Positions 1 to 15,003 of a DNA stretch of 18,818 nucleotides are shown in pieces (the first letter of the stretch is position 1; the number at the start of each line of letters is the position of its first letter). The translations under genes were made by a program, and so were the position numbers. The stretch comes from Anaerolineae bacterium (GTDB lineage: Bacteria > Chloroflexota > Anaerolineae > JAFGEY01), in NCBI GenBank assembly GCA_016929775.1, contig JAFGIE010000054.1, forward strand, positions 1 through 18,818. The letters are read 5' to 3'. The notes below the pieces were generated by a model. That model was not told where the DNA came from, did not search any database, and saw nothing but the letters and a program-made list of their open reading frames with translations.

Positions 1-478
1 CCCTCCGCTCCTGCGGGGGGACGCCGGTGAGTCCGTCGTGCGCTCGTCCCTCCGCTCCTGCGGGGGGACGCCGTGTGCGACACCGTCGTGCGCTCGTCCC
101 TCCGCTCCGCGGGGGGACGCCAGTGCCCGGACCGGCGTGAAGAGGGGAGGCAGCGCAGATGCGCCGACGCAGAGCATCGGCGCGAGCGCCGGGTGTGGCT
201 CGTCCCTCCGCTCCTGCGGGGGGACGCTAGTGCCCGAACCGGCGTGAAAGGGGGAGGCAGCGCAGACGCGCCGACGCAGAGCATCGGCGCGAGCGCGGGG
301 TGTGGCTCGTCCCTCCGCTCCGCGGGGGGACGCCGGTGCCCGGACCCGCGTGGAGAGGGGAGGCAGCTCAGACGCGCCGACGCAGAGCATCGGCGCGAGC
401 GCCGGGTGTGGCTCGTCCCTCCGCTCCGCGGGGGGACGCCAGTGCCCGGACCGGCGTGAAGAGGGCAGGCAGCGCAGA
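1..478. repeat. GC-rich tandem repeat array (two short and four long units)
   Basis: Units start with CCCTCCGCTCC(T)GCGGGG at 1, 48, 98, 204, 311 and 417. The first two are about 47-50 bp; the next three are 106-107 bp and the last is cut at about 478. Long units share a second block with the inverted repeat GCGCCGA / TCGGCGC around a 9-nt loop, and each unit start (CGTCCC...GGGACG) can also fold as a hairpin. Units are 90 percent or more alike by eye, with a few substitutions. The array runs off the left edge of the window, so its full size is unknown. It carries no unique spacers, so it is not a CRISPR. It looks like a GC-rich minisatellite or an intergenic palindromic repeat family. Confidence 0.85.
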
Positions 479-785
479 TCGTGTCGATCTCGGGCGGCGC
501 AAAGCACGCCAGCCCCGACAAGATCTGGCGCGCCATGGTGGCGCTGCGCCGCGCGTGGTCGGTCGGGTCGCCGCTCTTGTAGGTCCACAGATCGTGCAGC
601 ATGCCGGCGATCGTCGACAGCTCGGCGTCTAAGCCCCGCGCGCGAGCTAGGAGGGCGCAGGCCTGAGCCACGCCGTAGAGATGGACAAAGCCGCAGCGGC
701 GCTCCTCCACGTCCGGCTGGGCGCGCAGGACCTGGTCCACGACCTGGCGGACGCGCTCGGTGCGGTCCAGCTCGACAGCTGTCAT
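476..785 (-). pseudogene. HD-domain protein, 3' end lost into repeat array
   Basis: Reading from ATG at 785 on the minus strand gives a protein starting MTAVELDRTERV. It has the helical core of small HD-superfamily metal-dependent phosphohydrolases: H35, the HD pair at H64-D65 (motif AGMLHDLWTYK) and H77 in DHARRSA. The family-like sequence continues to about residue 104 (PPEIDTICAA), where homologues normally go on with an A-I-x-x-H-S type helix and a conserved D-A-D segment. Here the frame instead enters the tandem repeats and stays open, with no stop, to the window edge. The gene follows the upstream isomerase by 13 nt, so it is the last member of that operon. The substrate is unknown. It is probably non-functional, unless the assembly at the repeat is wrong. 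Confidence 0.7.
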
Positions 786-12800: not shown

Positions 12801-12829
12801 ATTCTAGCACCGAGGCGAGGAGCTGTCAA
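12801..12829 (-). promoter_or_regulatory. Promoter of the dgoD-mannosidase operon
   Basis: On the minus strand a perfect TTGACA (12824-12829) and TAGAAT (12801-12806) are spaced by exactly 17 bp. The transcript would start near 12794 and have an 80-nt leader. It is back to back with the hgc promoter, whose -35 begins at 12846. Confidence 0.7.
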
Positions 12830-12842
12830 AGCGCAGGTTGCC

Positions 12843-12873
12843 GATTTGACAAATCGACAAACGTCGATATAAT
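12843..12873 (+). promoter_or_regulatory. Promoter and overlapping palindromes upstream of arsR-hgcAB
   Basis: A perfect -35 TTGACA (12846-12851) and perfect -10 TATAAT (12868-12873) are separated by 16 bp. Two perfect inverted repeats overlap them: GATTTG-A-CAAATC (12843-12855) covers the -35, and ATCGAC-AAAC-GTCGAT (12853-12868) fills the spacer up to the first base of the -10. A dimeric repressor bound here would block RNA polymerase, as expected for an ArsR/SmtB autoregulated operon. The transcript would begin near 12880, with a leader of about 36 nt before the ArsR start. Confidence 0.75.
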
Positions 12874-12915
12874 TCGCCCTCGACAACGGTAGGCGAGACG
12901 TGTGGGGGTCATGAC

Positions 12916-13395
12916 GTGGACGACGGGCGGGCTGGATCTGTGGGTCAGGGCGTGTCTGTACAGCCGGATGGGCGCTGTGACGCGTGCGGGTGCGGGTGCG
13001 GCGACGCGTGCAGGTGCGGCGACGCGTGCGAGCGCGACAACGCGAGCGGCTGCGTGGACGCGGTGGCGTTTGCCAAGGCTTTGGCTGATGAAACGCGTCA
13101 GCAGATCATGGGTGAGCTGTGCTGCGTGTGGCGCAGTGTGGGAGAGGTCGTCGAGGCGTTGGAGGACAGGGTCAACCAGCCGACGGTCAGCCACCACCTG
13201 CGCATCCTGCGCGATGCGGGACTGGTGCGCGTGCGCCGGGTGGGACGACAGCGCTTCTACACGTTGAACCAAGAGCGACTGGTGGTGTGCTGCGGTCGGC
13301 TGGCAGTGACGTTCGCGCCAGAGGTCGCCGGGCGCGTCCTGCGCGCCGATCTGGATGGTGGCGAGGGGGAATGGACGACAGAGGAGCAGCGATGA
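12916..13395 (+). CDS. ArsR/SmtB-family repressor with cysteine-rich N-terminus
   Basis: The 159-residue protein contains a winged helix-turn-helix of ArsR type: FAKALADETRQQIMGELCC at 52-70, recognition helix QPTVSHHLRILRDAGLV at 88-104 and wing VRRVGRQRFYTL. ELCC (C69-C70) lies where the ELCxC arsenite/metal site of classical ArsR proteins sits in helix 3; VVCC (C125-C126) is in the C-terminal dimer helix. An extra N-terminal segment, residues 21-46, holds eight cysteines in a CxxCxCxC...CxC pattern. It is the first gene of the operon and overlaps hgcA by ATGA. It probably represses the operon until a thiophilic metal (arsenic, mercury, cadmium) binds. The GTG at 12916 has only a weak GGGGG ribosome binding site; a start at a downstream GTG would still keep the cysteine cluster. 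Confidence 0.85.
   Translation: MDDGRAGSVGQGVSVQPDGRCDACGCGCGDACRCGDACERDNASGCVDAVAFAKALADETRQQIMGELCCVWRSVGEVVEALEDRVNQPTVSHHLRILRDAGLVRVRRVGRQRFYTLNQERLVVCCGRLAVTFAPEVAGRVLRADLDGGEGEWTTEEQR
12979..13038 (+). repeat. 18-bp tandem repeats encoding the ArsR cysteine cluster
   Basis: Three units begin with GACGCGTGC at 12979 (24 bp, with one internal extra GGGTGC), 13003 (18 bp) and 13021 (18 bp, diverged at its end). They are in frame and encode DACGCG-like hexapeptides (DACRCG), so the N-terminal cysteine cluster seems to have grown by codon-phase repeat expansion. Confidence 0.75.
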
Positions 13396-14393
13396 GTGGT
13401 TTGGCTCTCGGGCGGGCTGCCATCCGCCAGACGACGAGCGAGCTGACCTGGGTGAACCGCTGGGATCACATCCAGGCGCGCTGGGGTGTGCGGCGCAGCG
13501 AGCATCGCGTCGAGCCTGGGCTGTATGCCCTGGGCGACCCGGGACCCGAGTCGCCGGTCTTTGTCACGGCCAACTATACGCTGAGTTTTGATGCGCTGCG
13601 TGCCGCACTGAGCGGGATCGACGGCTACATCCTGGTCCTCGATACAAAGGGGATCAATGTATGGTGCGCGGCGGGCAAGGGCACGTTCGGCACCGATGAG
13701 CTGGTGCACCGCATCGAGGTGGTCGGGCTGGCGGACGTGGTACGCCACCGCACGCTGATCCTGCCGCAGTTGGGTGCGCCGGGCGTCTCGGCGCACGAGG
13801 TGCGGCGGCGGTCCGGCTTCCGCGTCGAGTATGGGCCCGTGCGCGCCGAGGACCTGCCCGCGTACCTGGAGACCCACAAGGCGACGCCCGAGATGCGACG
13901 GGTGCGGTTCGCGTTGCGCGATCGGCTGGTGCTGATCCCGGTCGAGTTTGTGCACGTGCTGCGCCCCATGGCGATCGCGGGGGTCCTGCTCTGGCTGCTC
14001 GTGGGTTCGTTGGCGGCGTGGGGAGCGGTGGCGGCGATCCTGGCAGGGGCAGTGCTCTTTCCGATCCTGCTGCCATGGTTGCCGACGCGTGCGTTCAGCA
14101 GCAAGGGCTTCCTACTCGGCGGGGCAGTGGGCATTGCGTTCGCCTTGCTTGCCTTCTACGGGGGGAGGGATCTGGCCTTGTGGCGGCGCGTGGGATGGGC
14201 GCTCGCCTACGTACTGGCGCTGCCTCCCATCACGGCTTACCTCGCGTTGAACTTTACCGGTTCGACGACCTACACCTCAAAGAGCGGGGTCCAGCGCGAG
14301 ATGGACACCTACATCCGGCCTATGGCCTGGACCTTTGCACTGGGCATGGCTGTGACACTGGTTTCGAGCATCTTTCAGTGGATAGGGAGCTAG
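13392..14393 (+). CDS. hgcA: HgcA, corrinoid-dependent mercury methyltransferase
   Basis: The 333-residue protein has the diagnostic HgcA layout. The N-terminal corrinoid-binding domain carries the cap-helix motif NVWCAAGK at 89-96, with C92 as the expected lower-axial ligand of the cobalt, shared with no other protein family in this form. The C-terminal half has about five membrane helices (roughly 187-207, 211-230, 237-256, 265-284, 311-328) and the conserved NFTGSTTYTS...SGV loop at 287-300. HgcA transfers a methyl group from methyl-corrinoid to Hg(II), forming methylmercury, at the cytoplasmic face of the membrane. The ATG at 13392 overlaps the arsR stop (ATGA), and hgcB follows after 1 nt, so the three genes are translationally coupled. 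Upstream in-frame starts lie within arsR and are rejected. Confidence 0.96.
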   Translation: MSGLALGRAAIRQTTSELTWVNRWDHIQARWGVRRSEHRVEPGLYALGDPGPESPVFVTANYTLSFDALRAALSGIDGYILVLDTKGINVWCAAGKGTFGTDELVHRIEVVGLADVVRHRTLILPQLGAPGVSAHEVRRRSGFRVEYGPVRAEDLPAYLETHKATPEMRRVRFALRDRLVLIPVEFVHVLRPMAIAGVLLWLLVGSLAAWGAVAAILAGAVLFPILLPWLPTRAFSSKGFLLGGAVGIAFALLAFYGGRDLALWRRVGWALAYVLALPPITAYLALNFTGSTTYTSKSGVQREMDTYIRPMAWTFALGMAVTLVSSIFQWIGS

Positions 14394-14394
14394 G

Positions 14395-14970
14395 ATGGAG
14401 ATGACGTCATCGTGTTGTGCGGGCGCGTGCGCCTGTGCGCTGGATGTGGTCGTGAGCGGCACGTACCTGAACTCGCTGACTTACGATGCCGCTCTGTGCG
14501 TGAACTGTGGGATGTGCTTGGTCGTCTGCCCGCACGGTGTGTTCGAGCCCGGGGTGCGGGTAGTCACGCTCGTGCGCCCCGAGGCGTGCATAGAGTGTGG
14601 CGCGTGCCAGCGCAATTGCCCGACTGGCGCGCTGGAAGTGGACAGCGGTGTGGGCTGCGCGGCGGCGATGATCCGCGCGGCGCTGACCGGGAGCAGCGAC
14701 GTGACCTGCGGTCCTAGCGATGGTGGAGACTGCTGTGGGCAGGCCCGATCAGCGCCTCAGGATGAGGGGGCCTGCTGCGGGCAGGCGCGCTCCGCTCCAC
14801 AAGACGCAGGTGGGTGCTGCTGCGCGGGCGGCGACGCGAATGACGATCCGTGCTGCGCGCAGTCGGGGCCCAAAGTCCACATCCACCGCGGCTGCTGCGG
14901 CGCGGACAACGATCCGTGCTGCGCGGACGAGGAGGCGTGCTCTGCCGGCGCGGGCGGGTGTTGCGGATAA
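14395..14970 (+). CDS. hgcB: HgcB, two-[4Fe-4S] ferredoxin with a long CC-rich tail
   Basis: The 191-residue protein contains two ferredoxin cluster motifs: CVNCGMCLVVCP (C35, C38, C41, C45) and CIECGACQRNCP (C65, C68, C71, C75), the latter characteristic of HgcB, plus C88. HgcB reduces the HgcA corrinoid for re-methylation and its C-terminal cysteines are thought to hand over Hg(II). Typical HgcB has about 95-105 residues and ends with one vicinal Cys pair. Here residues 105-191 form an added tail with CC at 113, 127, 153, 167, 175 and 189, CCC at 141-143 and single C105 and C182. The N-terminus also has C7, C8, C12 and C14, giving about 30 cysteines in total. The ATG at 14395 lies 1 nt after the hgcA stop. 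Confidence 0.95.
   Translation: MEMTSSCCAGACACALDVVVSGTYLNSLTYDAALCVNCGMCLVVCPHGVFEPGVRVVTLVRPEACIECGACQRNCPTGALEVDSGVGCAAAMIRAALTGSSDVTCGPSDGGDCCGQARSAPQDEGACCGQARSAPQDAGGCCCAGGDANDDPCCAQSGPKVHIHRGCCGADNDPCCADEEACSAGAGGCCG
14731..14814 (+). repeat. In-frame 42-bp duplication in the HgcB tail
   Basis: Two adjacent 42-bp units (14731-14772 and 14773-14814) each encode CCGQARSAPQD plus three residues. The protein copies differ at two positions, while the DNA shows several silent changes, so the duplication is not recent and the peptide seems to be under selection. A second loose repeat, NDDPCCA / DNDPCCA, follows at residues 150-156 and 171-177. Confidence 0.8.
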
Positions 14971-14974
14971 CGAC

Positions 14975-15003
14975 GTCCCCGTTCTCTCACAGGGAACGGG
15001 GAC
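14975..15003. terminator. Hairpin between convergent hgcB and gyrB
   Basis: GTCCCCGTTC (14975-14984) pairs perfectly with GAACGGGGAC (14994-15003) around a 9-nt loop. It begins 4 nt after the hgcB stop and ends 28 nt before the gyrB stop. There is no T run on either side, so termination may be by stem alone or by Rho, but the position fits a bidirectional terminator. Confidence 0.6.

What the first reader, a model, noticed from the sequence alone, without database searches (positions are those of the whole stretch)
12843..15003. Complete mercury-methylation operon: arsR-hgcA-hgcB
HgcA carries NVWCAAGK with Cys92 and a five-helix membrane domain; HgcB carries CIECGACQRNCP. hgcAB is the established genetic requirement for methylmercury formation. 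The three genes are coupled (ATGA overlap, then 1 nt) behind one strong promoter and end at a hairpin. The bacterium is therefore predicted to be a mercury methylator, in a lineage (probably Chloroflexota) for which methylation is known mainly from metagenomes.
Basis: partly seen in the sequence, partly recalled or inferred. Interest (0 to 1): 0.95.

Follow-up and report, generated by a model that had tools for sequence, protein, structure and literature searches.

The report
Arsenic-switch operon for mercury methylation
This contig, likely from an Anaerolineae bacterium, carries the mercury-methylation genes hgcA and hgcB behind a regulator gene and a control site that relatives use in front of their arsenite-methylating genes, so the bacterium is predicted to make the neurotoxin methylmercury and arsenic would likely switch it on.

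Summary
In detail: arsR (12916-13395), hgcA (13392-14393) and hgcB (14395-14970) are intact and coupled as described. HgcA scores 451.9 bits against the curated HgcA model (cut-off 275), carries Cys92 and places inside HgcA, outside CFeSP and HgcAB-like proteins. HgcB passes its model only just (99.7 against 99).

(1) The ArsR belongs to a subfamily with two invariant Cys pairs that in Anaerolineae usually stands before arsM (arsenite methyltransferase). Its 28-bp promoter/operator (12846-12873) is shared: 41 exact sites in 396 genomes; of 30 sites fetched, 27 have arsR within 150 nt and 28 have arsM downstream. In one genome the site stands directly before hgcA. So hgcAB is predicted to be arsenic-controlled. 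(2) HgcB ends in a 103-residue tail with 17 Cys in 8 CC pairs (median 4 Cys in 92 other loci); a peptide repeat in it has changed mainly by synonymous substitution. Similar tails arose repeatedly.

ArsR control of hgcAB, arsM near hgcAB, and Chloroflexota HgcA are already in print; the shared arsM-type operator and CC-array tail were not found in the searches made here. No activity was tested.

The parts
12846..12873 (+). Promoter with overlapping operator TTGACA-AATCGACAAACGTCGA-TATAAT; the inverted repeat ATCGAC-N4-GTCGAT is at 12853-12868
   Evidence: 12 of 12 sigma-70 hexamer match; 0 mismatches to the operator motif of arsR-arsM loci, the only site with at most 6 mismatches in the window; motif tested in 396 genomes
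12916..13395 (+). arsR: ArsR/SmtB repressor of the arsM-linked subfamily, Cys pairs C69-C70 and C125-C126
   Evidence: NF033788 72.6 bits, cut-off 55; the four Cys invariant in 50 aligned; the GTG start is supported by relative P0242, which begins alike, but a database prediction of this same contig (P0241, 113 aa) starts downstream at 13054
12916..13053 (+). Cys-rich N-terminal extension of ArsR (9 Cys), coded by an 18-bp DNA repeat
   Evidence: P0242 has an extension with 4 Cys, P0243 one with none; tandem repeat at 12990-13029, 95% matches
13392..14393 (+). hgcA: corrinoid-domain plus membrane-domain mercury methylation protein, Cys92 codon at 13665-13667
   Evidence: NF040863 451.9 bits, cut-off 275; tree; Foldseek best match 9a0b, the HgcAB model, E 7.2e-21
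14395..14970 (+). hgcB: dicluster ferredoxin with Cys73-equivalent C88 and a long CC-rich tail
   Evidence: NF040864 99.7 bits, cut-off 99; homologues
14659..14967 (+). HgcB C-terminal tail, 103 residues, 17 Cys, 8 CC pairs
   Evidence: Counts against 92 loci and 119 homologues; codon test of the internal repeat
14731..14814 (+). Two tandem copies of the peptide CCGQARSAPQD-x-G-x (14731-14772 and 14773-14814) inside the tail
   Evidence: 9 synonymous and 2 non-synonymous codon differences
14975..15003 (.). 13-pair hairpin between hgcB and the convergent gyrB; possible transcription end, no T-run

Best explanation
It is an arsR-hgcA-hgcB operon whose regulator and promoter/operator are of the kind that relatives use before arsenite methyltransferase genes (arsM), so it is predicted to make methylmercury and to be switched on by arsenite or a related thiol-binding metal. 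Predicted cycle: the ArsR dimer sits on the inverted repeat between -35 and -10 and blocks RNA polymerase; As(III), or perhaps methylarsenite or Hg(II), bound by the Cys pairs C69-C70 and C125-C126 releases it; HgcA and HgcB are then made together. HgcB electrons reduce the corrinoid of HgcA, S-adenosylmethionine methylates it (as reported for ND132 HgcAB, PMC11588087), and Hg(II) is handed over by C-terminal Cys pairs of HgcB. Here the eight CC pairs of the tail would act as a multi-site loading array in place of the usual one or two. Shown here: the genes, family membership, shared operator, invariant Cys pairs, the tail and its conserved repeat. Inferred: ligand, derepression, methylation, the tail's role.
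For: HgcA and HgcB pass curated models; HgcA tree position; Cys92. Operator: 0 mismatches in the window; 24 of 32 distinct relatives measured have at most 2 mismatches, 680 shuffles never under 5; 41 exact sites in 38 of 396 genomes, control pattern 0 in the rows; of 30 fetched, 27 with arsR within 150 nt and 28 with arsM downstream. On the 15 sites not used to derive the motif, arsR is within 150 nt in 14 and arsM downstream in 14. The same site stands directly before hgcA in G313/L097. arsM within 1.5 kb of hgcAB in 9 of 93 loci. C69, C70, C125, C126 invariant in 50 ArsRs. Tail counts, codon test, at least 7 changes on the tree.
Against: No activity, ligand or binding was measured. The window has no arsM, and the ligand of this ArsR subfamily is not known from any call. 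8 of the 32 relatives measured lack a good operator (4-10 mismatches) and one of 30 sites (L179) has neither gene. Only 2 of the 22 hgcA-bearing class genomes carry an exact site (G241, G313), so most hgcAB in the class are controlled otherwise. Two studies seen in passages found arsR absent from their hgcAB contigs (PMC10349881) or not close to hgcAB (PMC12953829). HgcB is only 0.7 bits over its cut-off. One contig, no reads, no genome.
Confidence: 0.68

Rival explanations
1. An ordinary hgcAB pair with a local ArsR; the regulator answers to another metal (Hg, Cd, Zn) or to redox, and the likeness to arsM loci is only shared ancestry.
For: At least five Cys layouts of ArsR-type genes stand before hgcA in 18 of 88 loci, so ArsR association is not tied to one sensor. 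Structure relatives include Ni-, Zn- and Cd-linked regulators (SrnR, CzrA, CadC; the metals are partly recalled).
Against: Not only the protein but the operator is kept identical to that of arsR-arsM loci, and arsM and hgcAB share clusters in 9 of 93 loci.
Confidence: 0.22
2. The CC tail is neutral repeat growth: slippage in GC-rich DNA that happens to code Cys.
For: GC of the tail is 0.72; a 21-bp tandem repeat at 14896-14941; the ArsR extension is such a DNA repeat.
Against: The 14-codon repeat has 9 synonymous against 2 non-synonymous codon differences, 0 of 100000 random draws as conservative; CC pairs exceed shuffles, 15 of 20000; CC-rich tails arose at least several times with unlike linkers.
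Confidence: 0.2
3. An HgcA-like corrinoid protein that does not methylate mercury (CFeSP, or the HgcAB-like family of the same class).
For: Weaker HgcA matches below the cut-off are common in the class (160 of 396 genomes match at all, 22 over the cut-off).
Against: 451.9 bits for HgcA against 218.5 for HgcAB-like and 75.8 for AcsC; tree; Cys92.
Confidence: 0.04

Closest known systems
HgcAB of Pseudodesulfovibrio mercurii ND132 (PMC7305189, PMC11588087; passages)
   Same: Corrinoid domain with cap Cys, five-helix membrane domain, dicluster ferredoxin, Cys73-equivalent, C-terminal CC
   Different: ND132 HgcB has one C-terminal pair (C94, C95); here 8 CC pairs and 17 Cys beyond the Cys73-equivalent
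ArsR-controlled hgcAB in ND132 (Gionfriddo 2023; not held, known only through passages of PMC10349881 and PMC12953829)
   Same: An ArsR-type gene before hgcAB; hgcAB transcription reported to answer arsenic
   Different: Other lineage; whether the ND132 operator is of the arsM type was not seen
arsR-arsM operons of Anaerolineae (L143-L169, L173-L202 in part)
   Same: Same ArsR subfamily with both Cys pairs in most, same promoter/operator
   Different: hgcAB in place of arsM; no arsM in the window
arsR/arsM/hgcAB clusters (L012, L013, L015, L107, L114; general remark in PMC7438021)
   Same: Arsenic-methylation and mercury-methylation genes side by side
   Different: The window keeps only the arsM-type control, not the arsM gene

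Membership tests
HgcA (mercury methylation corrinoid protein) | Passes curated HgcA model | tested here: met
   451.9 bits, cut-off 275
HgcA (mercury methylation corrinoid protein) | Cap-helix Cys in N(V/I)WCA(A/G)GK | tested here: met
   NVWCAAGK, Cys92, invariant in 30; the motif form is recalled. The model is of low confidence at 88-96
HgcA (mercury methylation corrinoid protein) | Five-helix membrane domain after the corrinoid domain | tested here: met
   Helices 175-203, 206-229, 235-257, 263-288, 297-332
HgcA (mercury methylation corrinoid protein) | Groups with HgcA, not with CFeSP or HgcAB-like proteins | tested here: met
   118-row tree, quick method with one support value
HgcA (mercury methylation corrinoid protein) | Forms methylmercury | not testable with these tools
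   needs an assay
HgcB (mercury methylation ferredoxin) | Passes curated HgcB model | tested here: met
   99.7 bits, cut-off 99: only just
HgcB (mercury methylation ferredoxin) | Two CxxCxxCxxxCP motifs, Cys73-equivalent, C-terminal Cys | tested here: met
   C35/38/41/45, C65/68/71/75, C88, terminal CCG (protein printed); the features as named in PMC7305189
ArsR/SmtB metalloregulators | Winged-helix ArsR fold and model score | tested here: met
   72.6 bits, cut-off 55; Foldseek SrnR 7p6f, CzrA, ArsR 6j05
ArsR/SmtB metalloregulators | Binds its operator, released by metal | not testable with these tools
   needs a binding assay
arsR-arsM operon | arsM-type operator and ArsR subfamily | tested here: met
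arsR-arsM operon | arsM in the operon | tested here: not met
   No ArsM hit in the window; hgcA stands in that place. So it is not filed as an arsR-arsM operon, only as sharing its control

The most novel reading that the evidence does not exclude
Mercury methylation has taken over the enzyme slot of an arsenite-methylation operon: arsenite, sensed by an arsM-type ArsR on an arsM-type operator, turns on methylmercury production, and an HgcB with an eight-site thiol array loads the mercury. HgcAB would then be one arm of a SAM-fed methylation response to thiol-seeking elements, which would explain why hgcAB and arsM keep meeting in the same clusters.
Probability: 0.3. Interest if true: 0.78.

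Novelty: new variant of a known kind. Interest (0 to 1): 0.6.

Why it matters
What switches hgcAB on, and what it is for in the cell, are open questions. An operator defined by sequence and shared between arsenite methylation and mercury methylation makes a direct test possible: does arsenic raise methylmercury production in Anaerolineae? It also gives a pattern by which such arsenic-controlled methylators can be recognised in sediment data. The recurrent CC-array tails are a natural experiment on how HgcB takes up Hg(II).

Tried and rejected
Rejected: HgcA as CFeSP or HgcAB-like protein. Hairpin as a proven intrinsic terminator. The ArsR N-terminal Cys cluster as a selected metal site (DNA-level repeat, relative P0243 has no Cys there). 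Selenocysteine in hgcB: hgcB is open to TAA 14970 without an inner stop.

Led nowhere or replaced: tRNA and Rfam scans of the window found nothing. Counts of HgcB tails used looser motifs (over-counted L049 and L051); one search replaces both; L015 could not be measured. In one search the row named window was measured on a region that ends short of the operator; the true site is scored in another line of the same call; L112 repeats L015 and is not counted; five loci without a core match (L094, L107, L114, L162, L165) were not measured. 12 ArsR rows without a core match were left out of the ArsR tree. In one search a simple text pattern missed one of the two Cys pairs in seven L rows, at least one of them (L015) only because the pattern was too strict; so 'invariant' is claimed only for the 50 aligned (the window and 49 of the other 119 listed). 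One search printed no result; one search repeats it. That P0246, P0264, P0311 and P0319 lie beside hgcAB rests on equal contig lengths only.
Full report
OBSERVATION. The three genes are there as described. arsR runs from GTG 12916 to TGA 13395, hgcA from ATG 13392 to TAG 14393, hgcB from ATG 14395 to TAA 14970. A 12-of-12 promoter lies at 12846-12873 and a strong hairpin at 14975-15003 (stretch z -4.28), without a T-run. gyrB is convergent downstream; a galactonate-dehydratase-type gene of the mandelate racemase superfamily is divergent upstream.

HGCA AND HGCB ARE GENUINE BY SEQUENCE. NCBIfam gives HgcA 451.9 bits (cut-off 275) and HgcB 99.7 (cut-off 99). The search for HgcA relatives was capped at 7998 proteins, 120 listed; the best other than the window's own is 85% identical (P0123). 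Cys92 of NVWCAAGK is invariant in 30 aligned sequences. In a 118-row tree with three AcsC and eight HgcAB-like rows, the window lies in a starred clade of 12 HgcAs (quick method, one support value). The predicted structure (pLDDT 81; under 50 around Cys92) has five long helices after residue 175. Its best PDB match is the published HgcAB model 9a0b (E 7.2e-21, TM 0.47), then CFeSP chains. By sequence the only PDB relatives at E up to 0.01 are CFeSP.

LINEAGE. No genome is held for the window. Of 12 hgcA-bearing genomes searched with its GyrB, 11 matched: nine at 60-69% for the best match, G054 and G291 only at 46-56%. In the class of G001, the genome of an Anaerolineales MAG (L005), 374 of 396 genomes matched, the best at 72-73%. 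In the same sample 160 genomes match the HgcA model at all and 22 are over its cut-off. The five best GyrB matches (G015, G080, G213, G067, G082) are not among the 22, so the trait is patchy. GC of the operon (0.677) equals that of the window (0.678).

THE REGULATOR IS OF THE ARSM KIND. The 30 best ArsR relatives with loci in the class sample (L143-L172, 54-69% identical) lie in genomes none of which is among the 22 with HgcA. Of 24 neighbour genes scanned (21 downstream on the same strand, 3 opposite) 18 are ArsM-type arsenite methyltransferases; a profile built from these finds ArsM in 20 of the 30 loci. C69, C70, C125 and C126 are invariant in 50 aligned ArsRs. In the model (pLDDT 78) the first pair follows helix 59-68 and the second lies in helix 119-133. 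In the ArsR tree the window joins P0242 and P0243 (98*); hgcAB-linked L012, L014 and L015 fall elsewhere among arsM-linked rows, which suggests more than one pairing, but there are only 102 columns and most forks are weak.

THE OPERATOR. Upstream of these arsR genes stands TTGACAWATHGAY-N5-TCDATATAAT. The window has it without mismatch, and nothing else on either strand comes within six mismatches. Of 32 distinct relatives measured, 24 have at most two mismatches (18 none) and 8 have 4-10; 680 shuffled regions never came below five. A scan of 396 genomes found 41 exact sites in 38 genomes, control columns zero. Of 30 sites fetched, 27 have arsR within 150 nt, two more at 345 and 357 nt, 28 have arsM downstream in the locus, one (L179) has neither. 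Half of these loci had helped to define the motif; on the 15 that had not (L176, L179, L181, L182, L184, L185, L187, L189, L190, L194-L198, L202) arsR is within 150 nt in 14 and arsM downstream in 14. Of the 11 sites not fetched, six precede arsR matches by coordinates, one (G313, L097) precedes hgcA itself by about 105 bp with no arsR found in that locus, and four were not checked. Only 2 of the 22 hgcA-bearing class genomes carry an exact site (G241 and G313), so this control is a minority form.

ARSENIC AND MERCURY METHYLATION GENES MEET OFTEN. In 9 of 93 distinct hgcA loci arsM lies within 1.5 kb on the same strand: arsR-arsM then hgcAB in L012 and L013 (643 bp gap in L013); hgcAB then arsM in L015, L094 (partial), L097, L107 and L114; arsM then hgcAB in L010 (Methanoperedens) and L102. 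Flanks were 1.5 kb for 13 of the loci and some contigs are short, so this is a lower bound. An ArsR-type gene found with a narrow profile lies just upstream in 18 of 88 loci with enough DNA, in at least five Cys layouts by eye. Minimum changes on the HgcA tree: 5 for arsM, 12 for ArsR.

THE HGCB TAIL. After the Cys73-equivalent (C88) HgcB has 103 residues with 17 Cys and 8 CC pairs. Of 120 listed homologues, the window's own included, only P0002 has more (23 Cys, 10 CC). In 92 of 93 hgcA loci that could be measured the median is 4 Cys; seven have 8 or more and one (L101) has 18. 41 of 92 exceed the 'up to four' named in PMC7305189 (passages), so longer tails are common but arrays of this size are rare. 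The eight rows of 93 with at least 8 Cys need at least 7 changes on the tree. The two copies of CCGQARSAPQD-x-G-x differ at 9 synonymous and 2 non-synonymous codons; random placement of the 13 substitutions never did as well in 100000 draws. The frame is therefore translated and the peptide has been under selection. CC pairing exceeds a shuffle of the same residues (15 of 20000 as high).

HOW IT MOST LIKELY WORKS is set out in Best explanation. Its functional steps lean on papers seen in passages: Cys73 and the C94/C95 pair of ND132 HgcB (PMC7305189); SAM as methyl donor (PMC11588087); ArsR-type genes and arsM near hgcAB (PMC7438021); the arsenic response in ND132 as reported in PMC10349881. 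The ND132 regulator paper itself is not held. Against the reading, PMC10349881 found no arsR on its own selected hgcAB contigs and PMC12953829 found arsR genes not close to hgcAB.

NOVELTY. Full-text searches for hgcA+hgcB+ArsR, HgcB with vicinal or C-terminal cysteine, hgcAB+Anaerolineae, hgcAB+arsM+arsenic, ArsR-like regulator+hgcAB, HgcB+cysteine-rich, HgcB+C-terminal tail, co-regulation and HgcB+arsenite methyltransferase listed no paper that by title or abstract start treats an arsM-type operator before hgcAB or CC-array HgcB tails; most listed papers were not opened, and the library lacks most subscription papers. I file it as a new variant of hgcAB operons.

Noticed in passing
window 14395-14436: The N-terminus of HgcB also holds Cys (MEMTSSCCAGACACA); HgcB has 30 Cys in 191 residues in all.
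   Followed up: no
window 12979-13048: GC-rich 18-bp tandem repeats code the Cys-rich N-terminal extension of ArsR; probably repeat slippage.
   Followed up: partly
L097 1369-1396: The arsM-type operator stands directly before hgcA with no arsR in that locus; an arsR relative lies elsewhere in that genome (G313), so control could be in trans.
   Followed up: partly
L010 4936-5823: Methanoperedens MAG with arsM just before hgcAB: the pairing is not limited to Chloroflexota.
   Followed up: no
L115-L122: HgcA-like genes below the HgcA cut-off, each with an HgcB-like neighbour, are present in class genomes and form a separate branch; function unknown.
   Followed up: partly
L101, L028, L103, L049, L100: HgcBs with CC-array tails built from unlike short repeats, in separate parts of the HgcA tree except L100 and L103, which are sisters.
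   Followed up: partly
window 12801-12829: An 11-of-12 promoter-like site on the minus strand faces the divergent dehydratase gene.
   Followed up: no
window 73-632: Overlapping open frames with repeated peptides (such as SIGASAGCGSSLRSAGG) suggest repeated DNA at the start of the contig.
   Followed up: no
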